64,000 nucleotides of DNA from NCBI RefSeq assembly GCF_011806565.1, contig NZ_JAATOP010000014.1, positions 1 to 64,000 on the forward strand, written 5' to 3'. The stretch comes from Marivivens donghaensis. GTDB lineage: Bacteria > Pseudomonadota > Alphaproteobacteria > Rhodobacterales > Rhodobacteraceae. The notes under the pieces are model-generated. The model had not been told where the DNA came from. It was given only the letters and a program-made list of their open reading frames with translations, and searched no databases. Positions 9,404-24,872 of this stretch are shown here, one piece after another (positions within the stretch are counted from its first letter, which is position 1; each line of letters opens with the position of its first letter). The translations under genes and the position numbers were made by a program.

Positions 9404-10243
9404 TCAGGTGTCGATATCGCCTTGCTGCACGAAGTCGCTGAGTTGCAGATCTTCGAGCAGGATCGTGCCGCCTTCGTAGATGAGCAGTAGGCCCGCTTCG
9501 GTATCCGCGTAGCCCGTGTGGGTGGTCCACATATCACCGCCTTCGATGATGAGGCGGTCCGCGCCGACCTCGAAATCGGTGATGGTGTCGTTGCCGAACT
9601 CTCCCTTGAAAATAAAGCGGTCGTTGCCGCCGCCGCCCGTCAGGATGTCATCGCCTGCGCCGCCGTTGATCTTGTCACGGCCACCGCCGCCGACGAGCGT
9701 GTCGTCACCCGCACCGCCGCGAAGCCTGTCGCGGCCCGCGTTGCCGAAGAGAACGTCAGCGCCGCTACCGCCCCAGATGTCATCGTTGTCCTTGCCGCCG
9801 AAAATGCGGTCCGCACCCGTGTGACCGCGTAGATCGTCGTCGCCACCGTTGCCGCGTAGGATGTCGTTGCCCGCGAACCCGTAAAGGCGGTCATTCGCGT
9901 CCATGCTGACGATGCGGTCGTGGCCGGTGTAGAGCATCTCTACCCCCGAATTATCCATGGCGAGGTTGGGATAGGAGCCGCCGTCACCATCGCCGTATTC
10001 GGAGCCGTTCAGGGGTGTAATCTGGATATCGCCGGACTTGGTGTAAACGACGCTATAGGACACCGTGTCGCCGTCATCGAGGTTGATGCTCAGGATGCCG
10101 TCGGTGGAGCCATCGTTGTAAAACGCGTAGTTATAGGCCCAGACGTAGGCGTCGCTTTCGGCATTGTTGTCGATGTCATACTCGTCGACTTCAGCCAACA
10201 GGATTGGAGTCTTCCCGCTGTATTCGAGGGAAATTTCGATCAT
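9404..10243 (-). CDS. RTX / haemolysin-type calcium-binding repeat protein
   Basis: A 279-residue acidic protein. Residues 1-100 are a non-repeat domain (YDIDNNAESDAYVWAYNYAF and following). Then come about eight GGxGxDxLxG nonapeptides (AGNDILRGNGGDDDLRG, GAGDDTLVGGGGRDKINGG) and a C-terminal cap (NDRFIFKGEFGNDTITDFEV). Such repeats fold into a Ca2+-bound beta-roll outside the cell and are exported by type I secretion through an uncleaved C-terminal signal. No ABC exporter gene is in the window. A GGCTGCC/GGCAGCC hairpin (10266-10286) lies in its upstream region. The start lacks a clear ribosome site. Confidence 0.85.
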   Translation of the reverse strand: MIEISLEYSGKTPILLAEVDEYDIDNNAESDAYVWAYNYAFYNDGSTDGILSINLDDGDTVSYSVVYTKSGDIQITPLNGSEYGDGDGGSYPNLAMDNSGVEMLYTGHDRIVSMDANDRLYGFAGNDILRGNGGDDDLRGHTGADRIFGGKDNDDIWGGSGADVLFGNAGRDRLRGGAGDDTLVGGGGRDKINGGAGDDILTGGGGNDRFIFKGEFGNDTITDFEVGADRLIIEGGDMWTTHTGYADTEAGLLLIYEGGTILLEDLQLSDFVQQGDIDT

Positions 10244-10474
10244 GATAAAAACTCACTGGTTACGCGGCTGCCAACACACGGCAGCCCGAAGGATCGTACC
10301 TTTCGCAACCATATGGCGACCAGATTTCCCGCCAAGGGGCAAAAGAGGCGAGAACAGCGATACCACCGAAATAGAGTGATAATTCCACATCATGCGAGAC
10401 GGATTCTCATGGCGAAGGTGTGGAACATTCAGGCAAACGGGTCGTTGTTTCGGCGATACAGCTGGAGATCCCCC

Positions 10475-11221
10475 ATGTCCGAAACCCGCGAAACCGCCGT
10501 CCTCTACCGTATGGTCATGCCGAACCACGTCTGTCCCTACGGTCTGAAATCCAAAGCTCTGCTTGGAATGAAGGGTTTCGATGTCGAGGATCACTGGCTG
10601 GAAACGCGCGAAGAAACGGACGCTTTCCTTGAAGAGCACAACGTCAAGACCTCTCCGCAGACTTGGATCAACGGGGAGCGTGTCGGGGGATACGATGACC
10701 TGCGGGATTACTTTGATATTCCGCTCGATGATCCGGACGAGACAACCTTCCAGCCTGTCATCGCCATTTTCTCGGTCGCGTTACTGATGTCGCTGGCGGT
10801 CACGCTGATCGCGAACGGGACGGTGCTGACGCTCGATATCTTCACGCGGTTTATCGCCATCGCGATGGTCTTGTTGGGCATTCAGAAATTGCAGGATGTG
10901 GAGCAGTTCAGCACCATGTTCCTCGGCTACGACCTGCTGGCGCGCAAGTGGGTGCCTTACGCCTACATCTACCCGTTTGCCGAGACGCTCGCGGGTCTGT
11001 TGATGATCGCGGCGATCCTGCCTTGGCTGTCGGGGCCGATTGCGTTGTTCATCGGCGGGGTAGGGGCCGCGTCGGTGTTCAAGGCGGTCTACATCGACAA
11101 GCGCGAGCTCAAATGCGCCTGCGTGGGCGGGGGCAGCAACGTGCCGCTCGGCTTTGTGTCGCTCACCGAAAACGTGATGATGCTGCTGATGGGCATCATC
11201 ACCATTGCCAGCCTGTTTTAA
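10475..11221 (+). CDS. Glutaredoxin-MauE fusion, membrane thiol-disulfide protein
   Basis: A 248-residue two-domain protein. Residues 1-85 form a glutaredoxin domain whose active site is CPYG, not CPYC, so it is monothiol-like (later motifs: KTSPQTWINGERVGGYDDL). Residues 95-248 form four hydrophobic helices of the MauE/DoxX type ending in KCACVGGGSNVPLGFVSLTE, with a Cys-x-Cys pair. MauE-type proteins pass electrons across the membrane for disulfide handling. Here a cytosolic glutaredoxin would feed the membrane part (inference). The start at 10475 has GGAG eight bases upstream; the longer frame from 9920 is the antisense of the RTX gene. It converges on the five-gene operon with a 4-base overlap. 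Confidence 0.8.
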   Translation: MSETRETAVLYRMVMPNHVCPYGLKSKALLGMKGFDVEDHWLETREETDAFLEEHNVKTSPQTWINGERVGGYDDLRDYFDIPLDDPDETTFQPVIAIFSVALLMSLAVTLIANGTVLTLDIFTRFIAIAMVLLGIQKLQDVEQFSTMFLGYDLLARKWVPYAYIYPFAETLAGLLMIAAILPWLSGPIALFIGGVGAASVFKAVYIDKRELKCACVGGGSNVPLGFVSLTENVMMLLMGIITIASLF

Positions 11222-12714
11222 TTCGCCCCTTCGGGTTTCAGCAGCACATCATGTGCAAGGCCGGAACTGCCCGACAGTTTCACCTGCGCATCGGTGTTCA
11301 CCCGCCAGACATGGCGCGAGCCGTCCGCCGCGCGACCCAGAACCCAGCGCTGTTGCAGGCCCCATCCATCGCGGCTGATCTGCATGGGCTGGAGGTCGAG
11401 CCGTGTCGGCATGATCGAAAGCACGGGGTGCGGTAGTTCTTCGTCGAACGTCCGCCTCTCCATCTGGTCGTCCATCTGGATATAGGGGTGCCAGTTGTCC
11501 GGCGGCGGGATGCGCACAGCGTATTCGGGCTGCGTGACTGTGCGGTCCTTGCGGATGGCCTGCACGAGATGCCCGCGCCCGTTGTCGTCCTTTTCTATGC
11601 GCACCTCGGCCCAAAGGAGGTTGTCCATTTCGTCCGTGCCGAACGCCACAACGTCCGTGGGATCACCCAGCAGCAGCGGCGCGTTTGCCAGCACAGGCAT
11701 GGCGCGGTTTTCGGTGCCGTCGGTCCACGCGCGGGCGACGCTCCTTTGCGCCTCTTGCGCCTCGACGGTGTTGCCGAAACCGTCGGTCACGGTGATTTTT
11801 TCGGGGTAAAGGACACTGTTCGAAGGCACGTCGAACGGCGCGATCCACGCCACGCGGTGCGCTTTGGTAAAGGCCGAGGCGATGACGAGTTGGCCGAGGT
11901 CGCTCGGCCCCGCAGGCGCAGCGGTCCAGTCGCGGCCCGCATCCTCCAGCCCCCACCACCTGTTCGGCGCGTCGCCCGCATAAACCAGCCGCGTGGGCAC
12001 GCAACGTGCGGTGAAATCGGCCATTTCTTCGGGAGTTTCGGACGGCTGGATGTCGTCCCAATGCAACGCAGGACCGCTGGCGTTGTGCACCCGTACAACA
12101 TCGATCCCGCCGTCGATCTCGGCAGAAGTAGACCCTGTTTCAGCGTGAAACGTGGATGCGGCCTTCACATCGGGGAGGGCGGCGAACCACTCGAAGACCT
12201 CGGGCATGACGATGCCTTCGAAGCGGCCGTCGTTTGCCTTGATCGACGCGGCGATGGCGTATCCGTCGATACGTTTCTGCTGTTCGACGCGGCGGAGCGA
12301 GGGGGGAATGACCTCCATCGTCAGGGCAAAATTCTCGTGCAGTTTCCTCTGCATCGCTTCCAAGGCTTCGACCACATAGCCATTCGCGCCGCTGGCGTTG
12401 TAGCGGGCGATCAAGGTGGTCATCCGGTTATAGAGCTTGATACCGAGCGTCAGCGACCCGCGCCAGTCATCGGACGTCGTGGCCAGAACGGAGGAGGGGA
12501 TGAACGCGTCCATCCCGCTGGTCCCGCCCGTGAGGCTATCGCGCCGCGCATCGAGTTGCACGGACACAGGCGCGCCGCCGTTGAAGCCCTTCAGCTCGCC
12601 CACCCACCATTGCCGCGACAACATCCACGCGGGATCGGCAAGGCGGACGAGAGCGCCGTCAGGAATGGCGCGGGCGTTGCGGGTATCGGGTTCGATCCGG
12701 TTACGGCTTGACAT
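11218..12714 (-). CDS. Conserved protein of unknown function, last gene of five-gene operon
   Basis: A 498-residue protein that I cannot assign. There is no signal peptide or membrane helix. The best landmark is near the N-terminus: LADPAWMLSRQWWVGELKG and then FNGGAPVSVQL. I recall similar W-x-L-x-RQWQ-x-GE segments in uncharacterised bacterial proteins, but no function. The middle is mixed alpha/beta, and the end carries a Trp-rich beta region (DNWHPYIQMDDQMERRTF, DGWGLQQRWVLGR). It overlaps the upstream 1375-residue gene by 14 bases, so the two are translationally coupled. Confidence 0.75.
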   Translation of the reverse strand: MSSRNRIEPDTRNARAIPDGALVRLADPAWMLSRQWWVGELKGFNGGAPVSVQLDARRDSLTGGTSGMDAFIPSSVLATTSDDWRGSLTLGIKLYNRMTTLIARYNASGANGYVVEALEAMQRKLHENFALTMEVIPPSLRRVEQQKRIDGYAIAASIKANDGRFEGIVMPEVFEWFAALPDVKAASTFHAETGSTSAEIDGGIDVVRVHNASGPALHWDDIQPSETPEEMADFTARCVPTRLVYAGDAPNRWWGLEDAGRDWTAAPAGPSDLGQLVIASAFTKAHRVAWIAPFDVPSNSVLYPEKITVTDGFGNTVEAQEAQRSVARAWTDGTENRAMPVLANAPLLLGDPTDVVAFGTDEMDNLLWAEVRIEKDDNGRGHLVQAIRKDRTVTQPEYAVRIPPPDNWHPYIQMDDQMERRTFDEELPHPVLSIMPTRLDLQPMQISRDGWGLQQRWVLGRAADGSRHVWRVNTDAQVKLSGSSGLAHDVLLKPEGAN

Positions 12715-15700
12715 GGCGAGGCTCCGGTCCGGGATTGCAGTGGGTGCGGTGAATGCCTGTGTCGGCAGCGCGAAGGCTCAGAAACGGCAGCAGATTGCCG
12801 AGGTTATTGTAGCTCTGCGCTCCGTCCGCTGGCAGATCGGTGAGGGTCAGCGACCGCAGCTTGGCGAGGTTTACGGCGGTGCTGACCACCTCGAACACGG
12901 TGTCGAGGGTCCATTCGGCATCGGGATCAGGCGGCGATAGCAGAGCGACCTGCGGCGCGCGGGCCGTTGGCGTGGGCGTGTCGATCACCGCGCCGATGGT
13001 GGCGGTGTCATCGGGGACGACCTCTTGCCACTGGTCGATCATCAGACCGCAGATCAGGCTGTTTGCGGGCTTGGGACCATTGAAAACAATGCCATTTGTC
13101 GCGTGATACACGCCGTCATTCACACGCTTTCCGCCGATCCAGTCGTTTTGTCCGTCCACAATCCCGCCAGGCCATTGGACGGCCCAACTGTCATCGCTGC
13201 CGCCCAGCACGAGGTCGGATAGCGGCGCGAGGCGGCTGCGGACGACTTGCGATTCCTCCAGCCATTCTTCCAGCGCATCGTGGTCCTCGAACAGCTTCTT
13301 CCACGCATCATTGCCGGGAGGCAGGGTGAAGGCGCGGACCACGGGCATGTCGGGATCGAGCGCCTTGGCCGCGGCCTCTCCTGAGAGGCTGCGGGCGTCC
13401 TGAATGCGGGCCTCGATCTTGCGCAGGGCACGTTCTGCCAGCGTTTTGCGGGGTATGCCCTTGGTCGTCTTGATGATGCCGAGGCAGATCAGTTCGACGG
13501 CTAGCACCTGCCAGTCGGTATCGGACGGGGTCAGCTGGTGAGTAAACGACTTGAGGCGGTCCATCAGGTTTTCCAACGCCTCGATCCGCGCGTCGATGTG
13601 TTTGGTCAGGTAGGAGGGCGATTCAACGACTGACAGCGTGGTGCTCTGCGGGTCGGCGAAGTCGTCCGGTTTGAAGGGGCGCGCCTCGGACAGCAGGCGG
13701 TTCACGCGGGCGGCGGCCCAGATGGTTTGCTGCGCTTTGTCGTCGAGCGTCCCCGTGAAATTTGCCGGATCGCGGCCCGTTGACAGGCAGGCCAGTTCGG
13801 CCAGCGCGGCGGCAGTATCGCGGTCGGGGGCGGCAAGGCGGACGAGCGCCAGCACGCTGGGGATATTGCCGATGTCATAGCTGCGCAGCGGGGTGAGCGG
13901 CTCTCTTTCGATGAGCCTGATCTCTCCGCCAAATTCGCCGACCAGACGTTTTGCGATGTCGTTCAGCGGGTCGTCTTCGTGCCCGGTCACGCCCACGCCG
14001 AAGCCAAGCGCAGCGCCGGAGACGCGGGGCTCCAGCACTTCGGGATCGGCGGGTGGAACGGCCCCTGCGCCACGTGTCGCGAGGAGGCCCGATGCGCGGT
14101 CGGGGCGGCCTTCGGTCAGCGCCAGCCCGCCTTCGGCCAGCATCACGGCGCCGAGGATGTCGATCCCGTCGCGAACCTCTGCCAGCACGGCGTCCAGTTT
14201 CTCGCGGTGATCGCCCACGGTGCGCAGATCGGCGGGCAGGTCGTTGTCGATCAGGGCGAGCGCGTCGAACCGCAGGGGCGACTGGCCCTCTTCTTCGATG
14301 TCGGGGAACGTCGCGGCGAGCGTTTCGATCACCCCGCCCGCGCCGCGAGATTGCAAATCTTCGCAGATCACGCGGGTGAGGCCGGCGTCATAGCGGCCCG
14401 CGCGGGTCAGTTCGGTCATCAGGCGGCGGGCCATTTTCACACGGGGCGCGGTGAGCGCGGCGTCGAAAATTCCGTCCATCCCTTCGAGCGCGAAGCCTTC
14501 CTCGGCCCGTGCTAGAAACCCTGCCAGCCGCGCGAGGCGTTGGGACGGTGCGATCAGATAGGTCGCATCGGGGTCGGGGTGCGTGGTCAGCGGGACGTCC
14601 TCGACGTAGCCCCACGCGCCGACGGATGTGCCGTCCGCGTCCTGTTCGAGGCGGATACGCGCCTCGCCTTCGATCCAGATATCGGGGCGGAGCGAGAACC
14701 AGTCGATGATATTGGCAACGGTATGATGCAGCAGATCCTGCGGCTGTTTCAGCAGGTATTCGAGATGTCTGATGAGCCGTTTCAGATCGTCGGAGCGGCT
14801 TGTCTGCGGGGTATTATCCCGCACGCCGACCGCGTTCCCGCCGGAGTTTTGCAGGAGCGTTTCCATCAGGCGGTGGGCCGTGGTCTCTCCGATCCGGCGG
14901 GGATTGTGGAGGATTTGGGCGCGATTGTTGGCGGCACTGGTCGCGTTGGGCTCGTCGATGATCGCCTGCATATCGGCGAGAATATTGCGCATCGCGTCTT
15001 CGCACAGAATGCGGAACAACGGCTCGGGGCCTTCGTCGGTCCGGCGGGCGGCTTGGTGATCGAGCAGGTCATCGACGTACCGCCCGTGCAGCATCTCGTC
15101 GATCACGGGATCGGCCCAAGTGTGAGTGCTCGTCTCGCCGCCCTCTGCGATCAGCGGGCCGCAGTTGCGGGTGGGAAAGGGGCTACCGGTGAGCTTGCTA
15201 AAGGGCAATTCGCGGCTGCCTCGGAAACCGGTGTCGGTCAGCAATTTATCTGCTGATTTTGCGTTCGAGGCCATTTCACTGATCATGTGGCGTTGGTCTG
15301 TGCTGTAGCCGTTCGAGCCCGCTGCGATCAGTTTGGCGACTGTCAGCACTTCCCACCGCGCACGGTCGCGCCACAGTTGGCCGAAGGGCATGCGCGCCAG
15401 CGTTTGGGCGAGGTCGTCGGCGGGGGCCATTGGAGAACGCAACGTCTCTGCGTGGCGGGCGAGCGGGACCGCCTCGCGGATGCCTTTGGTGATCTTGCCC
15501 AGCCACGGGTGTTTGCTGCTCGGCTTGGTCGAGACACCCATAATGCCGATGGGTGTGCGCCCGACGGCGAGGACGGGAATATCCGCGAAATCGGGCAGGG
15601 CGCGGGACAACTGGCGGCGCAACTGGTCGAGCGCAGCGGCGTCCGCGCCAAGTCCGCCTTCCTGCCCGAAGATCTTGTCGAAAACAAAGGTCGGGCGGAT

Positions 15701-16828
15701 CGCGGCTTCCCACAGAACGCAGAGCACCGCGTTGGTCAGTGCCTTGCTATCTTTCGTCGTGAGCGTGTCGGGGATACCTTTGGTGCGCAGCAGTTCGTGC
15801 AGCGCCTCTTGCTTGCCATCGGGGAGCGAGGCGAGCGGACCGCCGGTGCCCGCATCCTCGCCCTTGGTCGTCTGGCCCGAAAACAGCGAGGTCAGACCCG
15901 GCCCTTTCGCAAGGATGTCGAGCGTGCGTTCAACAGGCATATCGCCCGCGCCGATCACCGCGACTTTGGCGGTTTTGGCATCCGGCGGCACGTTGAAGCT
16001 CGTAGCCATGCCGACCTCGACCGCCGTATCGAAATCGGCAATCCAGAACAGCGGATCGCCCTTGCGGCTGAGAAGCGCGGTATCGCCGTCCCCCGGACCT
16101 GTGGGAAGGTCTTTGGGGATGTCTTTGCCTTCCTGCTCGAACTGCTCGCCGGGGTGGGTGTCGAAGGACACGCAGTAGATCAGGCGCGGAGGCAGAGAGC
16201 GGGCGAGGGGACGATCGCCGCTTTCGCCAGCCACAAGGCGGCCCTGTTTGACGGCCTGACGGATGGCGCAACTGCGGGCGGTGCCAGCGGCGGCGTCGAG
16301 GTCGGCGGTCGTCATCTCGCCGCGTTCCCAACGATTGCCGTCCGCGACTTCGCTATCCGAAAACCCTGCCGTCGCATCGGCGTGCATCGCGTCGGGGAAG
16401 GCGCGGATTTTAAGGGTGGTGCCGTCGCAGAACGTCTCGATCCTGAGCGGCAGCAGCATCAGCGCGGATTTGAGCGGCACGTGGAATTTGTAATCGCCGC
16501 TTAGCTGTGGCTGGTCGGATAGGTGCCAGCCCTGTTGGGGGGCGGGATCTTCGCGGTCCTGAAAATCGGCATCACGGATATGGCCCGAGGGGTCGATCTT
16601 TTCACGCAGGTTCCGAAACAGCAGCGCCGCCTTGTCCTGCGGCCCGATAACCGAAACCTGACGGCGGCCGACCATCAGACCCTCGACTACGATCAATGCG
16701 CGGGTGCCATCGGTGAGGGGGACGCTGACCTTGTCACCCTTGTTGATCCTGCCGCGCACCAGAGCGCCCGTGACAGCGGTCCCGCGGCCTGTAATTGAGA
16801 AAATGTCTTCGATTTTAAATAGGATCAT
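12701..16828 (-). CDS. Very large protein with EF-Tu domain-2-like N-terminus, unknown function
   Basis: 1375 residues. Residues 1-75 look like the second (beta-barrel) domain of EF-Tu: IEDIFSITGRGTAVTGALVR, INKGDKVSV, GPQDKAALLFRNL. No GTPase motifs (P-loop, DxxG, NKxD) are present anywhere, so the barrel is used outside translation. The rest has no family I recognise: a beta-rich segment to about 300, long helical parts at about 500-700 and 850-1150, and a C-terminal domain (SWAVQWPGGIVDGQNDWIGG). It is soluble by appearance. It starts 27 bases after the 873-residue gene and overlaps the next gene by 14 bases. Confidence 0.75.
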   Translation of the reverse strand: MILFKIEDIFSITGRGTAVTGALVRGRINKGDKVSVPLTDGTRALIVVEGLMVGRRQVSVIGPQDKAALLFRNLREKIDPSGHIRDADFQDREDPAPQQGWHLSDQPQLSGDYKFHVPLKSALMLLPLRIETFCDGTTLKIRAFPDAMHADATAGFSDSEVADGNRWERGEMTTADLDAAAGTARSCAIRQAVKQGRLVAGESGDRPLARSLPPRLIYCVSFDTHPGEQFEQEGKDIPKDLPTGPGDGDTALLSRKGDPLFWIADFDTAVEVGMATSFNVPPDAKTAKVAVIGAGDMPVERTLDILAKGPGLTSLFSGQTTKGEDAGTGGPLASLPDGKQEALHELLRTKGIPDTLTTKDSKALTNAVLCVLWEAAIRPTFVFDKIFGQEGGLGADAAALDQLRRQLSRALPDFADIPVLAVGRTPIGIMGVSTKPSSKHPWLGKITKGIREAVPLARHAETLRSPMAPADDLAQTLARMPFGQLWRDRARWEVLTVAKLIAAGSNGYSTDQRHMISEMASNAKSADKLLTDTGFRGSRELPFSKLTGSPFPTRNCGPLIAEGGETSTHTWADPVIDEMLHGRYVDDLLDHQAARRTDEGPEPLFRILCEDAMRNILADMQAIIDEPNATSAANNRAQILHNPRRIGETTAHRLMETLLQNSGGNAVGVRDNTPQTSRSDDLKRLIRHLEYLLKQPQDLLHHTVANIIDWFSLRPDIWIEGEARIRLEQDADGTSVGAWGYVEDVPLTTHPDPDATYLIAPSQRLARLAGFLARAEEGFALEGMDGIFDAALTAPRVKMARRLMTELTRAGRYDAGLTRVICEDLQSRGAGGVIETLAATFPDIEEEGQSPLRFDALALIDNDLPADLRTVGDHREKLDAVLAEVRDGIDILGAVMLAEGGLALTEGRPDRASGLLATRGAGAVPPADPEVLEPRVSGAALGFGVGVTGHEDDPLNDIAKRLVGEFGGEIRLIEREPLTPLRSYDIGNIPSVLALVRLAAPDRDTAAALAELACLSTGRDPANFTGTLDDKAQQTIWAAARVNRLLSEARPFKPDDFADPQSTTLSVVESPSYLTKHIDARIEALENLMDRLKSFTHQLTPSDTDWQVLAVELICLGIIKTTKGIPRKTLAERALRKIEARIQDARSLSGEAAAKALDPDMPVVRAFTLPPGNDAWKKLFEDHDALEEWLEESQVVRSRLAPLSDLVLGGSDDSWAVQWPGGIVDGQNDWIGGKRVNDGVYHATNGIVFNGPKPANSLICGLMIDQWQEVVPDDTATIGAVIDTPTPTARAPQVALLSPPDPDAEWTLDTVFEVVSTAVNLAKLRSLTLTDLPADGAQSYNNLGNLLPFLSLRAADTGIHRTHCNPGPEPRHVKP

Positions 16829-16855
16829 GGTGCGAAAGTCGCTTGGAAAAACTGG

Positions 16856-19477
16856 TTACAAAATATCGCTGAGGTGGATCGCCACGACGACGGGCCGCTC
16901 AAGCAGGATGCCCGCCATCCGCGCACCGTCCTTGCCCCACGCCAGCCCCGCCGGCCCTTGGCTGTGGTCAAACGCGTTCGGCGCGATGTCGTCGCCGCTG
17001 AGGTCCGACCACGACAGTGCATTCCAACTGCTAAGGTCCGTAGGCGTTTGCGGGGCGTCGCCGGTTGGGGCGTTCAGCCCGAAGGTCAGCCCCTTTTTCG
17101 GCTGGACGAAGGTGAGGAAATAGCCCGGATCGCCATCCAATGAAACGCCGCCCAGATCGGGGAAGCCGACGTAGGACAGATCGCGGGAAAGCTTTCCGTA
17201 CATGATCGGCAAGACCGGCGTCGTCCGCGTCAGGTCGATGGTGCGCTGGCCGTTTTCCATGACCGCCTTGCAGAGCATCACCTGAATATCGGGGAACTTC
17301 TCCAGCAGCGGGGTGCGCATGACGGTGACAAAGCCAACTTGCGGCGCTTCGCCATGCTCGCCCAAATCGGTGTCGCCCCAATCGCCGATGGGTTCGATAT
17401 CGGGGTTCAGCGGGCTCCCGTCCGTCGGCGCGGGAAAGGCGCGGCGGATGGGGGAGGCGTTGTTCGGCACGGGCATCCCGCGCCAGCGCAACTCGCGCAG
17501 CAGCTCGTGGTTCGCGCCGACCATCACGGCCTCCATCGCGCGGGGATCGTAGAACACGCCAGTGAGCGAGTTCTCGGGCATCTCGCGCAGGTTGGGGGCG
17601 ATGAGTTCGGGCGAGTCCTCGAGCAGCATTTCGAACAGCGGATCGGGCCAGACCGGATCGTGGATCAGGCGGAGGGGCAGGCTGTCGCCGTCCAGCTCTC
17701 CCGCGCCGCCGATACGCTGCGCGATGCGGGGCGGAACGCTGTTGGCAGGGTCGAGGGCGCGTTTGATGCCATCCGGAATGCGGCCCGCGCGGTCATCGAT
17801 GTCTTTGAATTTGGGTGCGTCTTTGGGCAGGAAGGACCGGTCGTAAGTGTCCTGCGCCCACGCCTGCATTTCCTCGTCCGCGGGATTGACCTTGGGCCGA
17901 TCATTCGGATTGCGCTCGAGGAGCTGGCCCAGCAATGCGGCGACCGTCTGCTCCACGTCGATCGAGGAAGAGCCGACGCCTGTCTGGTTGATGAGCGTGT
18001 CGACCAGATCGTCGGGCATCGCGGCCCCCGCGACGTGATCGGCGTCGGCAAAGGCATCAGCAGCGTTCTGGGCACCGGTCTGCATATCCTCGGGCGTAAG
18101 GCCGCGCCTGCCCGCCTGCCGCGCCACGGCGGAGGACAGCGCCACGTCGAGAACGGTTCCTTCGACGCGCTTTTTCAGCGAGGTTTTTCTGCCGTCATTG
18201 TCCATGATGCGGGTCCGCGCAGCGGCGGGACCGGCAAAGCCGACGAGCGATGTGATCGACGCGCTCCCCAGCGTACGGGTCGTTTGAGCGTTGAGCTGGC
18301 GGGCCGCGTGAGCGCGGGAGATGATGGCGTTCGCGTCTTTCATCGCGCCTGCGTCCTCACCGATGAAGGCGACCATTTCTTCCTGTCGTTTGCGCACGAT
18401 ATTGGTGCCCGCCCCCGCGAGCCTGCGCAGACCGAAATCGCGGTTGACGCTCTGGAACCACTCTGTCGAAGCTGACGAATGCGCGTCGTCTTCGTCCGCA
18501 TAGGCGCGGCCATAGGACGGGATCGGCATCTCTGATGAAAAGTGCGGTGATAGGGCGCCGTCGAGCGCTTCGTTAAAGATGTCCACGGGCATTTCGTCGG
18601 GGTTACGCTGCGCAAACGGGTCGTGGATAGGGATGAACAGCGTGCGGTCGACGACCATCTGCTGATCCAGTTCCTTGATCGGTGACAGGAACTTGGCGGA
18701 CATCGGGAACTCTGCCGGATCGTCATCCAGATCGAACGCGGTCAGATCGCGCAGCATGTCCTCCGCGCCGCGACCCGCGCCTGTGGTGAAGGTCCAGTGA
18801 TGATAGACGGGCATGGTCAGCGCATCGTCGCCGCGCTGCCACGCATAAAGCGTCTGGCCCGTCGGTTCCTGCCCCAATCCGGCGAGGCGCCCGTCCTCGA
18901 ATAGCGGCACGACGCAGGCGGTGTACTTGGTGCGCGGCTTGAGTTGTTGCAGGCTGACGAGGCGGGCGATAGCTCGCTCACCTGGTTCGGTGTCGAGCGA
19001 TTTGCCGTCGGGATCGTGGATATGCGCGCCCATCTGGACGTGGTTGGGCTCTGGCAGCAAGGCGCCGCCCGACACAGAGGCCGTCGCCAGCCCCGCCGCG
19101 CTGACGGTCACGCGGGTGTCGCCGATACTGACGCTGCACAGGTCGGACGGGAAACACAGCAACGCCATCCAAGGGTCGATGCCCATGTCGTTGTTCCAGC
19201 CGTGCGGGCTCAGCACCCACGGCAACATCGGGTCGGTGAATTCGACATACGGCAGGCCGCCCGCGCGCATATCGACGCTGCCCGCGACGGGGTAGTTTTT
19301 GCCGATCGCAGTGGGCTGGAGGGCGGAAACATTACCCGGACCGGCCAGTGACAGGTCGATCTCCACGGTTTCGGTGGAGCCGCCCTTTTTCACATCGAGC
19401 GTAAAGGACACCGCATCGCGGTCACCGCCAAGTGTGCGCATGCCGCGGCGGGCGTAGGCGTAGAAACGGCCGCTCAT
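16856..19477 (-). CDS. Large conserved protein of unknown function, third gene of five-gene operon
   Basis: 873 residues, no signal peptide or membrane helix. The N-terminal third appears beta-rich. A motif near residues 645-685 reads MVGANHELLRELRWRGMPVP; I recall similar N-H-E-L-x-R-E-L-x-W segments in uncharacterised proteins. Charged helical stretches lie at about 380-560. The C-terminus (FLTFVQPKKGLTFGLNAPT and after) is beta-like. It overlaps the 1117-residue gene start by 4 bases (ATGA). No catalytic motif was identified. Confidence 0.75.
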   Translation of the reverse strand: MSGRFYAYARRGMRTLGGDRDAVSFTLDVKKGGSTETVEIDLSLAGPGNVSALQPTAIGKNYPVAGSVDMRAGGLPYVEFTDPMLPWVLSPHGWNNDMGIDPWMALLCFPSDLCSVSIGDTRVTVSAAGLATASVSGGALLPEPNHVQMGAHIHDPDGKSLDTEPGERAIARLVSLQQLKPRTKYTACVVPLFEDGRLAGLGQEPTGQTLYAWQRGDDALTMPVYHHWTFTTGAGRGAEDMLRDLTAFDLDDDPAEFPMSAKFLSPIKELDQQMVVDRTLFIPIHDPFAQRNPDEMPVDIFNEALDGALSPHFSSEMPIPSYGRAYADEDDAHSSASTEWFQSVNRDFGLRRLAGAGTNIVRKRQEEMVAFIGEDAGAMKDANAIISRAHAARQLNAQTTRTLGSASITSLVGFAGPAAARTRIMDNDGRKTSLKKRVEGTVLDVALSSAVARQAGRRGLTPEDMQTGAQNAADAFADADHVAGAAMPDDLVDTLINQTGVGSSSIDVEQTVAALLGQLLERNPNDRPKVNPADEEMQAWAQDTYDRSFLPKDAPKFKDIDDRAGRIPDGIKRALDPANSVPPRIAQRIGGAGELDGDSLPLRLIHDPVWPDPLFEMLLEDSPELIAPNLREMPENSLTGVFYDPRAMEAVMVGANHELLRELRWRGMPVPNNASPIRRAFPAPTDGSPLNPDIEPIGDWGDTDLGEHGEAPQVGFVTVMRTPLLEKFPDIQVMLCKAVMENGQRTIDLTRTTPVLPIMYGKLSRDLSYVGFPDLGGVSLDGDPGYFLTFVQPKKGLTFGLNAPTGDAPQTPTDLSSWNALSWSDLSGDDIAPNAFDHSQGPAGLAWGKDGARMAGILLERPVVVAIHLSDIL

Positions 19478-22400
19478 GCGCTGACCTCCGTCGTGCGGAC
19501 CGCACCTTTGCCGAGGATGGCGCGGGGTGCGGGCTTGGTTGTCGAAATGGTCAGCGTGCTGTCGGTCATCACGTAGGTTTCGTCGCTGATGGTGATCTTG
19601 CGCTTTGGTTTGGCCTTGGGCGCGGGGCCGATGTTGCGCGCCAGCGACGCGGTCCCCACGGGACGGATGCGGCGAGCGGGGGCAAAGTCGGCGCCGGATG
19701 GTTCGGGCGCGTCGATGATGATGAGGTCTTCGCTGTCATCCACGACCACCGAGTCCGCCATCGGGAAATCGACGGTGGTGGTAAAGACCGCGCCGGACTC
19801 CATTTCCTCGAACGACGGAGAGGACAGTTTTTCGTTATCTGTCAATGTCTTGAAGTTACCAGGCGCAAAGCGGGCGATGTTCCTGGTGGCGGGGTTGTGG
19901 ACGGCGTTGTCCTCGTCCTTGATCCGCAGCACATCGAATATGTCGTCGCCCGTGACCGCCGCGCCGCCGAAGTGGTCGAGCTTCAGACCCAGCGGTACGC
20001 AGTCTTGCGACAGCGACACGGGCGCGTCGGGCATGACGCGGTCGGTGCAGTTCGTCAGCACGAAGTGCGTCGTCTCGGTTTTGCCAGCGCCCCACGATTG
20101 CGGCATCCGTAGCCGTTCGAGCAGATGGTCCGCCCAGACGTTTTCGGGGGGCAGGGTGCTTTGCTGGGTGTCGCCGAAGGACTTGTCGAAATGCACCTCG
20201 ACATCCCAGAACAGCACCTTGATCCCCGCGTTGCCTTTGGCCCGCCACGGTCCCGGACCGCTGAGCTGACCGCTCAGCCAGACGGAGCAGAGCGTATCGC
20301 GCCCCCGCTTGATCGTTGCGCTCGCGTGGACATCGGCCTGAAGGTAGAGCGGGCTGAAGATGATCAGCACGTCAAAACCGAGGTCTGCCAGAACAGTGAA
20401 GCCTTTGAGTTTCGCGTTCAGGTCCAGCCCCGCGCCGAACTGGAGGCTGTTGCTGGTCAGCGCGAAATAGCCCGTCGCGATCAGTTTGAAATTGCTGGAG
20501 TTGGCGACGACGAGCGTCAGTCGGTCGATGCTCGGGAAACCTTCGGGCGGCTCGAAATCGGGATGGAACCCGCCGATAGAGGCCGCGAATTCCGCCCTAG
20601 TTCCCCAGCACGACCGGATTGCAAAACCGCCCGACAGGGACATGCCTGCGATGACGGAATCGTGGATCGAGCCCTCCATATCGAAGCGCTGCGCGGTCAG
20701 GTCGAGCACGCCCGCGACGTCGATATTGATGCTGGCAATCGGCTCTTCGGGCTTGGGCAGGTTCATCCCGATGCTGCCGATGAGGATGATGCGCAGCGGC
20801 TCGGGCAGGGTGACGGCCAGCGCGATATCGGCGGTGATGATCGTCGGCGCGCCCCAGCTGAGCTTGACCGTCGGGCCAAGCACGTACTGCCCGCGGGTGA
20901 CGGGAAAAATGGCCGAGGCGTCTTGGAGTAGCTGCGGCCCGTCCTCTGCGGGGTTTTCGGGCGACAGCAGATCACCCGCACGCCCCGCGCGGACCACATC
21001 GAACAGCGCGTCGGTGTCTACATCGCGGTTGATCCCCACGAGGCCGCCCACGCCGAGCAGATTGAACCCGAACCCGAGCGCAATGGGGGGGAACTGCCCC
21101 GACATAAACAGGATCAGCGACCAGCCGTCCTCGCCATCCGGCATCTGGGTGTCGAGGATGCCGAAGGCGGTGATGCCGATCGCTTCGACCTGCAAACTCA
21201 GCACGCCCTGATAGCGGCCGATGTCGGGCAGGCATTCGATGAAACCGCCCCCCGACACGGGGCCCGCATCGACCGAAACGCCCATGCCTGTGGGCGGCAC
21301 GAATTTTACGCCAGCAAAGCTGGGGCCCTCGGACAGCACAAGGTCAAAGCCCGTTTCGACACCGATCCCCGTGATCGCGCCGGATACAGGGCCGATGCTC
21401 ATGGAGGCGTCCAGCGTGGCGCGGATACGCACGCCAAAGCCGCCGCCTGGCGCGGGGTCGGCGGGCAGGACAGAGATCGTGATCGCCTCGATCCGCAGCG
21501 CGTCCCCGAACCCGAGGTCCGTGGGGTATCGCGCGGTAAAGCCCGTCGCGCCCATCGACAGATAGAACCCGTCCTTCGTCGACCAGCCCGCCATCGGTTT
21601 GAAGCCGGTCGTGATGCCTTCGGGCGGCAGCAGGCTGGCAATGAACCCGTCCGCGTCAGCCGCCGACAGGGTGAAATCGAGCGTGTCCAGCTTCGCCTCG
21701 GTCCGCAGGTCGAAATTGCCGGGATCGAGTTTGACCTTCACCCCCGCGCGGTAATTCGCGGCGTGCATCGACAGCGGCCCGAACTTGTAGGTTTCGTCAT
21801 AGCCGTCGCCTTGCAGCTCCACGCCTAGATCAACGGGCGGAGCCGCCGCGCCGGTCGTGATGCCGTCCGGCGTGATCGTCATCTGCATCATGTCGACGGC
21901 ATCGGTCGCGGCAGAGAAAATAAGGTCGGTGTTGTTGCCCAGATCGACCGAGGTCTGCCCCTCGCCGTTAATGCTCAGCAGCGCCTTGAGCGACCGGTTC
22001 TGGATGTCGCCTTGCAACGTCAACTTGGCCGCCGCAGCGGGATTGATAGATTGGAAGATCGTCCAGATCAGCAGGAGGTCGTCGGGGTTCGCCTCGACAT
22101 TGGCGGGCAGATTGGCGTTCGCCGCCTCCATGATCTGCGCCCGCAGTCCCATCGCGCCGAGCAGGAACGCCACCGCCGCAACGAGCTGCGCGGCATCGAA
22201 ATCCTGCTCGCCAAAGCCGACGGTCTCCTGCACCGCGTCTAGCGGATCGCCGATCACCTCCGCGATCCGCGCAAAATCGAACTGGCGAGTGGTCCCCGCA
22301 ATCAACGCCGCGTCATTCCCGACCCCGATAAAACAAAGCACCTGCCAGACGGCGGGATAGTAGCGCGACAGGTAGACAGCGATGAGATGCTCGGTGACCA

Positions 22401-22827
22401 GCTTGGCCACTTCGTCCGGAGACGGGAGGGAGGCGATTGCGTCCGGCAGTTCGTCCCGCAGATCTTGGACGGCGGCGACGAACGTCCTCACCGCTTCGAT
22501 GGCTTCGATCAACTGCTCCACGTCTGCCATGTCGAAGTTCGGATCGTCGAACTGGCTCTTAGCCGTCGCAATTGTCGTGCGAAGACCTGACACGGCGGTC
22601 GCGAAAGTTTCTGCAACGGCTTCGGTCGGAAGTTCGGGCAATTCAATGCCGCAATCAGTGACGAATTCGCGAAGCTCTTCGGCGCGTTCGTTCAGGGATA
22701 CGGTCGTCGTGCTGTCGATGGTGAAGTCGTAGACGATGCGATTCTGCGACGGCAGCGACAAGAACGAAAGTGGCTCCAGCAGGCGCTCGATTTCACGGAT
22801 GAGAATGGCGGGTACAGCTTGGGTCAT
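19474..22827 (-). CDS. DUF6603-like large beta-rich protein
   Basis: 1117 residues. Residues 1-260 are largely helical. Residues about 340-960 are a long series of alternating beta strands with the landmarks GFGFNLLGVGGLVGINRDVD, WGAPTIITADIALAVTLPEP, GGFHPDFEPPEGFPSIDRL and LTSNSLQFGAGLDL. I recall this pattern as the DUF6603 family of large uncharacterised bacterial proteins. The C-terminus is acidic, then basic (APKAKPKRKITISDETY). There is no signal peptide. The repeated amphipathic strands could form a solenoid, barrel or groove; this is inference. It overlaps both neighbours by 4 bases. Confidence 0.75.
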   Translation of the reverse strand: MTQAVPAILIREIERLLEPLSFLSLPSQNRIVYDFTIDSTTTVSLNERAEELREFVTDCGIELPELPTEAVAETFATAVSGLRTTIATAKSQFDDPNFDMADVEQLIEAIEAVRTFVAAVQDLRDELPDAIASLPSPDEVAKLVTEHLIAVYLSRYYPAVWQVLCFIGVGNDAALIAGTTRQFDFARIAEVIGDPLDAVQETVGFGEQDFDAAQLVAAVAFLLGAMGLRAQIMEAANANLPANVEANPDDLLLIWTIFQSINPAAAAKLTLQGDIQNRSLKALLSINGEGQTSVDLGNNTDLIFSAATDAVDMMQMTITPDGITTGAAAPPVDLGVELQGDGYDETYKFGPLSMHAANYRAGVKVKLDPGNFDLRTEAKLDTLDFTLSAADADGFIASLLPPEGITTGFKPMAGWSTKDGFYLSMGATGFTARYPTDLGFGDALRIEAITISVLPADPAPGGGFGVRIRATLDASMSIGPVSGAITGIGVETGFDLVLSEGPSFAGVKFVPPTGMGVSVDAGPVSGGGFIECLPDIGRYQGVLSLQVEAIGITAFGILDTQMPDGEDGWSLILFMSGQFPPIALGFGFNLLGVGGLVGINRDVDTDALFDVVRAGRAGDLLSPENPAEDGPQLLQDASAIFPVTRGQYVLGPTVKLSWGAPTIITADIALAVTLPEPLRIILIGSIGMNLPKPEEPIASINIDVAGVLDLTAQRFDMEGSIHDSVIAGMSLSGGFAIRSCWGTRAEFAASIGGFHPDFEPPEGFPSIDRLTLVVANSSNFKLIATGYFALTSNSLQFGAGLDLNAKLKGFTVLADLGFDVLIIFSPLYLQADVHASATIKRGRDTLCSVWLSGQLSGPGPWRAKGNAGIKVLFWDVEVHFDKSFGDTQQSTLPPENVWADHLLERLRMPQSWGAGKTETTHFVLTNCTDRVMPDAPVSLSQDCVPLGLKLDHFGGAAVTGDDIFDVLRIKDEDNAVHNPATRNIARFAPGNFKTLTDNEKLSSPSFEEMESGAVFTTTVDFPMADSVVVDDSEDLIIIDAPEPSGADFAPARRIRPVGTASLARNIGPAPKAKPKRKITISDETYVMTDSTLTISTTKPAPRAILGKGAVRTTEVSA

Positions 22828-24872
22828 CGGTAGGCCACCACTTTGCGGTTTGCGACGAGGCGGCGTCCGAGGTGATCGGGCGGCGATTTGAACTTGAACT
22901 CACAGTATTTGTAGTCGTTGGGAAATCCGACGTCGGACCCCGCCTGAAGCGTCGCAAGGGATTGGCTGGGCGGGAGATATGCGCCGCCGCCAGTGGTTCT
23001 GAAATGATCGCTGTTATCTGCGAAATTCGGCAATGAAGCCGTCGCGCCGGTGTCATTGATGACCGAAATCGAGATCGTCCAATTTGGATAGTCATCCATC
23101 GCGGGTTTGCCGTTGGTCCCGCCGCCATGCGCTCGGTCAGGCATCGTGTGTTGGATCATGACGGAAGCTTGGTTGGTCGTCAGATTAAACGCGATTGGCG
23201 AAATCGAGGTCTTGAGCGCGACCATCTGGTTGCCAAGATCGTTGTTGGAATATTCTGCTGCGCTGGTTGAGGGGCCGAACTGATAGTGCGCGTCGGTCAC
23301 CGTGGTGGAGGTCGACGGCTGTTTGCCGAAGAAACTGATGTTCACGAGACCTGCGAACGGGTGGTTGGCGGTGAAGCCGATCAGGTAGGCGCCAACCAGT
23401 CCGATCGCGATCAACGCGATGGCGATCAGACCGATCGGGCCGGCTGCAGTGCCGATGCCGAGCGCAGGCCCCATCAATTGAAGCAGCGGCAAAACCGCGA
23501 GGCCGGCAGCGCTCGCTCCGGACAGAAGGTGCCCCATAGCGACCGAGGTGTCGTTCATCATGTCTGCTTGGGCGTAGCCTGTAGCCGCGCCGTAGATTTC
23601 AAAGATGGCGACAACCGTCCCCAGCACGAGGACGCCGGTCTTCGCGACCTTGAGCGCTGTGGCTCCGGCGAATTCTTCGATAACGCCTGCCGATTTGTAT
23701 GCGGCTTGGGTGGTTTCGAGAGACCAAGTTGCGACCTCTGCAACCTTTCCCGACAGAGAGAAAAGCGACTTGAGTGTGTCTGCCTTGTTGGTCGATGTCG
23801 CCAGTGACTTGAGCTCTGCAAACAGGCCGATCACATGGGGAAGGTTGTCGAAGATGTAGTTGGCGTTCCGCGTCAGCGCCTTGAGCGCCTTGGTCATGGG
23901 ATGGGCGTCGTTCGCCATCGTCGCATTGAACGCATTGGTCAGCGCGCGGACATCGTCGAACATCTGCACGAAGTCCGCACCTGCGTTATAGACCTTCAGC
24001 AGTTTGTTGAGATGCTGCTCGGGGACACTCGATTTGACGATAATCATTTGTCCCGCAACTTGCGTGTAGGACAGATAGACCTTCATTACGAAGTCACCGA
24101 TCTGCGCATTGGTCGGCGGCGCGGCAGAAGCAGATACGTTGCAAAGAATGTCGGCTCGTTGGGTGCTGTTCGCTATGGCGCTGTAGGCGTTGCCGGAAAT
24201 TTCAATCGGTAGATCTTCGGCAACTTTGGTCAGGCGCTCGACTGTGAACAGGCCCGTCGCGCTTGTGCTGGGGAGATCATCGAGCAGAGAGCCAGCTGAC
24301 AGGTTGCGCACTTCCTCAAGGCTATGGAGTTCCGGCGCATGGGCGCGAATGGCAGAGAGGCCCGCGAACAGTTCGGTGAGGAATAGCATCCGCTCAACGG
24401 CAGGCGCGGCGTCAAAGACATCCAGCAGGTTGTCGGTCGACAGCAGCAACCGCTGAAACGAAACAGGTAGCCAACCACCAGCTGCCCAGACTTTGTCTTT
24501 CAGTCCGGATGTGTTGCCGCGGTAGAATTCAGTAAGAGCGCCACTGAAGCAGCACATGAATTTTTCATCGAGCTCGTAGTGGGTTCTAATGACCTCAAAG
24601 CTTTCGTGCAGATTGCCTTGTATCTGTGCGCCAAGTGTCTTGGAATCCTGCGCGCTGCTCTGCTTGAGGTGCTCCATGGTTGAATTGATGAGGCGCCAGA
24701 GTTCGATAGCTTTCTGGGCATCGTCGGTCTTGCGCCCGACCTCTTTGAGTTTGCCTTGGAGCTTTGCGTGCCACGCAGGGTCGACTCGCTTTTTCGCGAT
24801 TGCATCGACCTCGTACATATAGCTGCGAAGCGGCGCGAGCCAGGGCATCAATTTGCCAGCAGGGTTCACCAT
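22824..24872 (-). CDS. Helical protein with membrane segments, first gene of five-gene operon
   Basis: 682 residues, unrecognised. Residues 1-400 are mainly helical. Two hydrophobic stretches follow: VLGTVVAIFEIYGAATGYA at about 420, and a longer one at about 455-505 containing GPIGLIAIALIAIGLVGAYL. The last 170 residues look beta-rich (DAHYQFGPSTSAAEYSN, then PNWTISISVINDTG). Such a layout (long helices, hydrophobic hairpin, beta tail) is seen in some pore-forming or translocated proteins, but nothing proves that here. Base composition looks lower in GC than the four genes downstream. No clear ribosome site precedes the ATG. Confidence 0.7.
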   Translation of the reverse strand: MVNPAGKLMPWLAPLRSYMYEVDAIAKKRVDPAWHAKLQGKLKEVGRKTDDAQKAIELWRLINSTMEHLKQSSAQDSKTLGAQIQGNLHESFEVIRTHYELDEKFMCCFSGALTEFYRGNTSGLKDKVWAAGGWLPVSFQRLLLSTDNLLDVFDAAPAVERMLFLTELFAGLSAIRAHAPELHSLEEVRNLSAGSLLDDLPSTSATGLFTVERLTKVAEDLPIEISGNAYSAIANSTQRADILCNVSASAAPPTNAQIGDFVMKVYLSYTQVAGQMIIVKSSVPEQHLNKLLKVYNAGADFVQMFDDVRALTNAFNATMANDAHPMTKALKALTRNANYIFDNLPHVIGLFAELKSLATSTNKADTLKSLFSLSGKVAEVATWSLETTQAAYKSAGVIEEFAGATALKVAKTGVLVLGTVVAIFEIYGAATGYAQADMMNDTSVAMGHLLSGASAAGLAVLPLLQLMGPALGIGTAAGPIGLIAIALIAIGLVGAYLIGFTANHPFAGLVNISFFGKQPSTSTTVTDAHYQFGPSTSAAEYSNNDLGNQMVALKTSISPIAFNLTTNQASVMIQHTMPDRAHGGGTNGKPAMDDYPNWTISISVINDTGATASLPNFADNSDHFRTTGGGAYLPPSQSLATLQAGSDVGFPNDYKYCEFKFKSPPDHLGRRLVANRKVVAYR

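What the first reader, a model, noticed from the sequence alone, without database searches (positions are those of the whole stretch)
11218..24872. Five-gene, 13.7-kb operon of large unassigned proteins, candidate undescribed system
Five minus-strand genes (682, 1117, 873, 1375 and 498 residues) follow each other with 4-base overlaps, one 27-base gap and a 14-base overlap. No member carries an enzyme, transporter, phage, secretion or transposition motif I recognise, yet several have sharp conserved segments (LSRQWWVGELKG; NHELLRELRWRGMP; the DUF6603-like core; an EF-Tu-like barrel). Such packing of giant proteins without signal peptides suggests a cytoplasmic assembly or exported complex, with the membrane-segment protein as anchor or pore. 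Function is unknown.
Basis: partly seen in the sequence, partly recalled or inferred. Interest (0 to 1): 0.88.

Follow-up and report, generated by a model that had tools for sequence, protein, structure and literature searches.

The report
Swappable-cargo carrier of giant proteins
Four giant proteins of unknown fold, found side by side in bacteria and archaea, stand behind an exchangeable enzyme or membrane-active gene that is swapped together with the front part of the next protein, which suggests an undescribed machine for carrying interchangeable protein payloads.

Summary
The operon is real and exactly as described. Four genes (B-C-D-E: 1117, 873, 1375, 498 aa) form a cassette: 37 of 86 held loci show all four in that order, at least two occur together in 15 phyla of Bacteria and Archaea, and no locus contradicts the order except a rotated one (C-D-E-slot-B). 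The fifth gene (A, 682 aa) is not part of the conserved core. It fills a variable slot directly before B that elsewhere holds subtilases, trypsin-like or M64 peptidases, PhoD or PLD enzymes, tyrosinase, galactose oxidase and unknowns. Relatives with unrelated slot genes keep C, D, E and the rear of B (core 65-85% identical) while the front of B falls to 15-35%; in five pairs examined by DNA the break lies at B residues 477-516. So the exchanged unit is [payload + front of B] and the constant unit [rest of B + C + D + E]. A ~120-residue C-terminal tag joins proteases of two unrelated folds; in 30 cassette genomes all its 15 matches are slot proteins, and tagged payloads share related B fronts. 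Best reading: a modular payload carrier with B as adaptor. Docking, release and target are inferred.

The parts
22824..24872 (-). Gene A, 682 aa: the variable payload-slot gene of this copy; no family over cut-off
   Evidence: Pfam, NCBIfam, PHROGs without a match over cut-off; only the window and G003 among held loci; dN/dS 0.08-0.095
23373..23660 (-). A residues ~405-500: Gly/Ala-rich hydrophobic hairpin, possible membrane-inserting segment
   Evidence: Hydropathy window at residue 470; NF041559 E 0.015 over residues 353-496, well under cut-off; same family E 2.7e-10 in the L014 slot protein, also under cut-off
19474..22827 (-). Gene B, 1117 aa: adaptor/body protein with DUF6603
   Evidence: PF20248 residues 441-997, E 7.3e-118; 86 ORFs in held loci
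21388..22827 (-). B front region (about residues 1-480): in relatives exchanged together with the slot gene; proposed payload adaptor
   Evidence: relatives; no exchange was seen between window and G003
21270..21390 (-). Window position of the exchange border seen in relatives (B residues 477-516 in five pairs)
   Evidence: Block starts of blastn in five pairs; windowed protein identity
19837..21507 (-). DUF6603 domain of B (residues 441-997); its larger rear part belongs to the constant unit
16856..19477 (-). Gene C, 873 aa: constant-unit protein, no known family
   Evidence: 0 Pfam families over cut-off; no PDB sequence up to E 1 with a 40-row profile; 77 ORFs in held loci
17471..17512 (-). 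Conserved C segment NHELLRELRWRGMP
12701..16828 (-). Gene D, 1375 aa: constant-unit protein, no known family
   Evidence: 0 Pfam families; 75 ORFs in held loci
16607..16825 (-). EF-Tu-like stretch at the D N-terminus (residues 2-74)
   Evidence: NCBIfam EF-Tu models, best E 2.1e-7, 30 bits against a cut-off of 479
11218..12714 (-). Gene E, 498 aa: constant-unit protein, no known family
   Evidence: 0 Pfam families; 50 ORFs in held loci, 28 of 31 further genomes
12586..12621 (-). Conserved E segment LSRQWWVGELKG

Best explanation
A modular payload-carrier. Shown from sequence: a constant unit (rear of B, then C, D, E) is inherited as one block; the gene directly before B and the front ~480-515 residues of B are exchanged together, the border falling in the same stretch of B; payloads are of many unrelated kinds, and a C-terminal tag shared by two unrelated protease folds goes with a particular type of B front. 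Inferred: the front of B binds its cognate payload (through the tag where there is one), C, D and E with the rear of B build the body of a large complex assembled in the cytoplasm without signal peptides, and the payload acts on something outside the producing cell (other cells or extracellular material), the complex being released by lysis or an unrecognised route. In the window the payload would be A, a protein with a hydrophobic hairpin that may insert in membranes.
For: Order and packing: 37 of 86 loci with B, C, D, E in order on one strand; adjacent B-C in 67 (median spacing -4 nt), C-D in 60 (median 11), D-E in 47 (median 0). Where the held locus lacked a gene the genome mostly has it: E 28 of 31, C 13 of 15, D 15 of 18. 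Slot: 68 of 81 loci have a same-strand ORF of 200 aa or more just upstream of B, median gap 8 nt, 58 within 100 nt; control ORFs of 400 aa or more: 49 of 182 within 100 nt. Payload kinds among 62 slot proteins: PhoD 9, subtilase 7, M64 4, galactose oxidase 2, NAL1 (trypsin-like) 2, tyrosinase, PLD, beta-lactamase2 1 each. Exchange: of 66 pairs with B core identity of 65% or more, the 30 with slot similarity 0.36 or more have B-front identity 47-98%, the 29 with 0.08 or less have 15-35%, the 7 between have 30-46%; partial rank correlation 0.375, 0 of 1000 permutations reach it. DNA: L026/L030 align over 10,993 nt at 85% from B residue 516 onward and L072/L083 over 11,533 nt at 87% from residue 486, with no alignable slot or B front; L087 and L077 also share upstream flanks, so the block was replaced in place. 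Tag: 21 proteins in 19 loci; 15 matches in 14 of 30 cassette genomes, all 15 at slot proteins by coordinates; tagged pairs of different enzyme class exceed the expected B-front score by 52.8 bits, 0 of 2000 permutations. No signal-peptide-like starts: B 3 of 82, C 0 of 77, D 1 of 71, E 0 of 50, slot 3 of 62, other ORFs 63 of 391.
Against: No structure, no binding, expression or secretion data. About half of the 62 slot proteins have no recognised function and some are probably ordinary neighbours (urea transporter L086, zinc alcohol dehydrogenase L088). 13 of 81 B loci have no slot ORF by my rule, some at contig edges, others with opposite-strand neighbours. The galactose-oxidase payloads (L071, L095) have B fronts like those of tagged payloads but no detectable tag. 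Most slot classes have no tag. In L074 gene E lies on another contig. 8 of 9 DUF6603 genomes in a Pseudomonadota sample are a divergent type without recognisable D or E. The extracellular action rests on enzyme kinds and on surface-type domains named in some archaeal and Streptomyces records, and is inference.
Confidence: 0.6

Rival explanations
1. Extracellular enzyme scaffold: B-E hold one secreted enzyme at the cell surface or in the matrix for degradation or cross-linking, without attacking other cells.
For: Many payload kinds (subtilase, tyrosinase, galactose oxidase, PhoD, M64) are usually extracellular enzymes (general knowledge); archaeal and Streptomyces records name BGTF surface, lamin-tail, VCBS and peptidoglycan-binding domains in cassette proteins.
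Against: No signal peptides in payload or carrier; the window's A and the L013/L014 slot proteins look membrane-active rather than degradative.
Confidence: 0.2
2. Intracellular defence: the slot gene is an abortive-infection effector (protease, phospholipase, pore former) held by B-E and released on phage infection.
For: Sporadic, horizontally spread distribution (tree mixes phyla; 3 of 289 and 9 of 398 genomes); effector kinds overlap with those of known defence systems (general knowledge).
Against: PADLOC: none of A-E matches up to E 0.1; of 5 slot proteins only L049's had weak hits (Cas10h 0.0012, RT-Protease_XI 0.04). In 92 neighbouring proteins no family recurs in more than 2, of 25 families shown out of 127. 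Tyrosinase and galactose oxidase are unusual as intracellular effectors.
Confidence: 0.12
3. Holdase/maturation complex: B-E keep a dangerous or cofactor-dependent enzyme inactive in the producer, delivery being done by something else.
For: Payloads include proteases whose catalytic motifs look intact: Asp and His motifs in 7 of 7 subtilases, a GTSM(A/S) serine motif in 5 of 7, a GDSG motif in 8 of 8 trypsin-like proteins checked. The front of B is payload-specific.
Against: About 4000 residues in four conserved proteins is much for a chaperone; no recurrent export gene beside the cassette.
Confidence: 0.08

Closest known systems
DUF6603 (PF20248)
   Same: B is a clear member by sequence (E 7.3e-118).
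   Different: The family entry covers about 500 residues of unknown function; it says nothing of the slot, C, D, E or of the exchange border inside the domain.
Polymorphic toxin systems (PMC3482391, abstract start in a search listing only)
   Same: A constant part joined with a diverse, recombining set of effectors.
   Different: There the variable toxin domain is the C-terminus of the trafficking protein; here it is a separate upstream gene exchanged with the N-terminal part of the next protein, and no immunity gene fits between slot and B (median gap 8 nt).
Tc (toxin complex) toxins (PMC6868009 and PMC7861908, abstract starts in a search listing only)
   Same: Several giant subunits, a variable enzyme as payload; the abstract of PMC6868009 says the enzyme varies between species.
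   Different: No Pfam domain of Tc proteins in A, C, D, E or B up to E 1; payload is a separate gene.
Extracellular contractile injection systems (PMC11495950, abstract start in a search listing only)
   Same: Payloads addressed to a carrier by a terminal signal.
   Different: No phage-type family in the window genes (only three weak hits of B, E 0.05-0.43); sheath family PF04984 absent from the window's genome and from 24 of 40 cassette genomes at E 0.001.

Membership tests
DUF6603 (PF20248) | Match over the Pfam gathering score | tested here: met
   394.7 bits against a cut-off of 27
Tc toxin complex | TcA/TcB-type and RHS-repeat domains | tested here: not met
   Pfam at E up to 1 on A-E gives DUF6603 plus two sub-threshold hits (Fn3_ELFN, CatAgl_D1), none of a Tc family
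Contractile injection system / eCIS | Contractile sheath gene with the cassette | tested here: not met
   PF04984: none in window genome or G003; matches in 16 of 40 cassette genomes, 9 over cut-off; control rang in 3 of 14 named genomes. Location beside the cassette was not seen in any listing
Type VI secretion cargo | T6SS genes in the host genome | not tested
   No T6SS family was searched; cassettes occur in archaea, Bacillota and Actinomycetota, groups not known for T6SS (general knowledge)
Polymorphic toxin system | Toxin domain fused to the C-terminus of a trafficking protein | tested here: not met
   Payload is a separate ORF upstream of B in 68 of 81 loci
Polymorphic toxin system | Adjacent immunity gene | tested here: inconclusive
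   No room between slot and B in most loci; a small related ORF before the slot in 4 loci only; immunity elsewhere cannot be excluded
Known anti-phage defence system | Match to a PADLOC family | tested here: not met
   A-E: 0 families up to E 0.1; libraries hold only systems described by 2023
BTH_I2691-type T6SS effector (for A) | Score over the NCBIfam cut-off (150 bits) | tested here: not met
   A 13.8 bits, E 0.015; L014 slot 39.5 bits, E 2.7e-10
Phage-derived structure | PHROGs families or phage/viral relatives | tested here: not met
   PHROGs: nothing for A, C, D, E; B three weak hits. B not in 50,697 phage records at E 0.01; pattern scans of viral contigs with C and B found no relative

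The most novel reading that the evidence does not exclude
A previously undescribed class of protein-delivery particle, shared by Bacteria and Archaea and unrelated to phage tails or Tc toxins, that is reprogrammed in nature by exchanging one cassette, payload gene plus adaptor half of B, at a fixed border onto a universal chassis (rear B-C-D-E).
Probability: 0.4. Interest if true: 0.95.

Novelty: categorically new. Interest (0 to 1): 0.87.

Why it matters
If right, a carrier with natural plug-and-play payloads exists in many phyla of both prokaryotic domains and has no described family behind it. The co-exchange of payload and B front gives a direct, testable map of which region should bind the payload, and the C-terminal tag is a ready marker for finding further payloads. 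Even if delivery is wrong, the fixed exchange border inside DUF6603 and the conserved four-protein block need an explanation and give four large protein families of unknown fold a common context.

Tried and rejected
Profile searches of PDB sequences: C none up to E 1; E one at 0.46; A one at 0.46; B 44 sequences, best 7.9e-6, mainly designed coiled coils and helical bundles matching its N-terminal part, read as helix composition and not kinship; D 42 sequences, best 3.7e-4 to methane monooxygenase hydroxylase over profile 544-670, plus TAL-effector repeats, not followed up. Profile-profile comparison among B, C, D, E and the tag found no shared domain (best D-E, 10% probability).

First idea: a conserved five-gene system; rejected because A is confined to the window and G003 among held loci. 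A itself was not searched in genome collections beyond the held loci and PDB.

Transitive clustering put L026 and L030 in one slot class; direct comparison finds no match between them, so they are counted by similarity there, while they carry the same label. The tree is a quick LG+G4 tree with long branches and weak deep forks; the first attempt did not finish. Its 31 (all labels) and 12 (four large classes) minimal changes are without a shuffled control and are supporting only.

Neighbour genes: no recurrent partner (92 of 200 candidate neighbours scanned). Paper searches: DUF6603 0 papers, PF20248 0; brought only general papers; I saw search listings and starts of abstracts, opened none. In the genus, sites lacking the cassette share only the transaldolase side, so no clean empty site was obtained; the RTX-like flank search was swamped by repeats.

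Full report
Observation. They are under purifying selection between the window and the congeneric genome G003: dN/dS 0.08-0.13 for every gene, A measured in two pieces. In the genus C occurs in the window's genome and G003 and not in five others; among 61 relatives searched these two are the only hits.

Families. Pfam at E up to 1 gives DUF6603 for B (7.3e-118) and only sub-threshold hits otherwise: Fn3_ELFN 0.3 for C, CatAgl_D1 0.001 for A; none for D and E. NCBIfam adds a short EF-Tu-like stretch at the start of D (2.1e-7) and a weak T6SS-effector hit for A (0.015), both far under their cut-offs. PHROGs gives nothing for A, C, D, E and three weak hits for B. PADLOC gives nothing for A-E. B has no relative in 50,697 phage records; pattern scans of viral contigs found no relative of C or B.

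Distribution. DUF6603 is found in 15 plasmid records, from Streptomyces, Embleya, Nocardia, Rhizobium, Paraburkholderia, Gemmatirosa and four haloarchaeal genera, and a scan of 84,980 species genomes with two conserved peptides brought 77 loci. The scan uses patterns from cassette-type proteins and is therefore biased to them. Iterated profiles in the held loci found B in 86 ORFs, C in 77, D in 75, E in 50 and A in 3, these three being the window and the two pieces of G003. Of 86 loci (five duplicates or cut pieces left out), 37 show B, C, D and E in order on one strand, counting the window; 20 show B-C-D, 10 B-C, 7 B alone, 4 D-E-B, 3 B-D-E, 3 C-D-E, 1 C-E and 1 D. Many are cut by contig or fetch ends. 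Where the record name gives a phylum, at least two of the four genes occur together in 15 phyla, at least three in 13 and all four within the held stretch in 7; four haloarchaeal plasmid loci also show all four. In genomes whose locus lacked or truncated a gene, E was found in 28 of 31 (L036 not held), C in 13 of 15 and D in 15 of 18. The D-E-B loci have C before D (C hits just upstream in L021, L029, L038, L040), that is a rotated order C-D-E-slot-B. Leptolyngbya PCC 7375 has two cassettes with different slot genes. In L074 E lies on another contig.

A divergent type. In 398 Pseudomonadota genomes DUF6603 occurs in 9. Besides the window, the other eight have a B of about 1500 to 3400 residues; five of eight have a C-like neighbour, and none has a recognisable D or E. 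So the cassette described here is one branch of a wider DUF6603 family.

The slot. By a simple rule (same strand, at least 200 aa, from 160 nt overlap to 900 nt gap) 68 of 81 B loci have a gene directly before B, median gap 8 nt, 58 within 100 nt; for other ORFs of 400 aa or more in these loci the figure within 100 nt is 49 of 182. The 62 slot proteins fall into 25 groups. Pfam finds PhoD-like in 9, subtilase in 7, M64 in 4, galactose-oxidase E-set in 2, NAL1 in 2, and tyrosinase, PLD, beta-lactamase2 and DUF2515 in 1 each, with some probable mis-assignments such as a urea transporter and an alcohol dehydrogenase (25 of 30 families shown). Several proteins called trypsin-like here rest on homology and a GDSG motif rather than a Pfam score over cut-off. 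Ten further unassigned slot proteins gave one NCBIfam match: the Halalkalicoccus slot protein L014 to the T6SS effector family NF041559 (E 2.7e-10, profile 705-837), the family that A touches weakly over profile 672-819. Direct comparison of A with L013 and L014 is weak (best E 0.023, hhalign 4.5%), so the kinship of A with that class is a hint only.

The tag. Subtilases and trypsin-like proteases in the slot share a C-terminal stretch of about 120 residues: 21 proteins in 19 loci. One protein (L006, 843 aa) has it between two protease-like halves. In 30 cassette genomes a profile of the tag finds 15 matches in 14 genomes; I checked all 15 against the locus coordinates and each is the slot protein already known. 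In the Pseudomonadota sample it finds none, though that search scored only ten candidates per genome and has no positive control.

Exchange. Pairs of loci with nearly identical carriers can have unrelated slot genes. L072 (Methylococcales, trypsin-like) and L083 (Nitrosomonas ureae, tyrosinase) share 90% of C, 89% of D and 89% of a 142-residue stretch of E, but B only 65%, because the front of B is 21% and its core 85% identical. Over 66 pairs with core identity of at least 65%, slot similarity and B-front identity separate completely: slot score ratio 0.36 or more goes with 47-98% (30 pairs), 0.08 or less with 15-35% (29 pairs), between with 30-46% (7 pairs). Many of these pairs share members, so they are not independent; the Mantel-type permutation gives 0 of 1000. 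In five pairs that I chose for DNA comparison (L026/L030, L072/L083, L087/L077, L053/L032, L056/L095) the alignable block begins at B residue 516, 486, 477, 490 and 499 and runs on through C and D; L056/L095 is fragmentary at about 64-73%. In L087/L077 upstream genes are alignable too, so payload plus B front was replaced between conserved flanks. In the control pair L074/L077, both subtilase-type, alignment covers the B front and most of the slot region. A gradual rate difference would not give such a step; recombination within the conserved start of the DUF6603 core does.

Tag and adaptor. Between loci with different enzyme classes, B fronts of two tagged payloads score 134-154 bits (medians in four bins of core identity) against 44-85 for other combinations; the mean excess after correcting for core identity is 52.8 bits, reached in 0 of 2000 permutations. 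Galactose-oxidase loci are an exception: their B fronts resemble the tagged type without a detectable tag.

How it probably works. The co-exchange of payload and B front is what one expects if the front of B must fit the payload. The rear of B, C, D and E then form a common body. Signal-peptide-like starts are rare in all of them, so assembly in the cytoplasm is likely. The payload kinds (proteases, phospholipase-like enzymes, oxidases, a possible membrane inserter) suggest action outside the producer. Which target and how the complex leaves the cell are unknown; a contractile sheath is not required, since PF04984 is missing from the window's genome and from 24 of 40 cassette genomes at E 0.001.

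Novelty. DUF6603 and PF20248 occur in none of the 5.39 million held papers; subscription journals and preprints are not held. Exchangeable effectors are a known idea, but the carrier proteins match no described system in the libraries used. I rate it categorically new, with the delivery function itself unproven.

Noticed in passing
window 9404-10243 (-): 279-aa protein with RTX nonapeptide repeats (HemolysinCabind E 5.8e-26); present beside the operon in G003 too, not part of the cassette elsewhere.
   Followed up: partly
window 11218-11221: The stop of E overlaps by 4 nt the stop of a convergent plus-strand ORF (9920-11221) whose rear part looks like a glutaredoxin-plus-membrane-domain protein (my reading of the translation).
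   Followed up: no
slot proteins L091, L077, L074, L087, L093, L067, L034, L064, L080, L050, L006: Clustered cysteines (such as CCCxCC, near the catalytic serine in some subtilases) in 11 slot proteins, all of them tag-bearing; perhaps metal binding or a redox lock.
   Followed up: no
L037 890-9677, L048 922-9706: Three related large slot-type genes (971, 980 or 979, 948 aa) in tandem before B in two Larkinella genomes; M64 match in one of them tested.
   Followed up: partly
L139-L146: Divergent DUF6603 loci with B of about 1500-3400 aa, C-like neighbour in five of eight, no recognisable D or E.
   Followed up: partly
L009, L010, L013, L014: Archaeal and Streptomyces plasmid copies have enlarged cassette proteins annotated with BGTF surface, lamin-tail, VCBS or peptidoglycan-binding domains.
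   Followed up: no
L034 7046-7498, L067 712-1110, L070 7925-8323, L087 7466-7891: A related small ORF (132-150 aa) directly before the trypsin-like slot gene in four loci.
   Followed up: no
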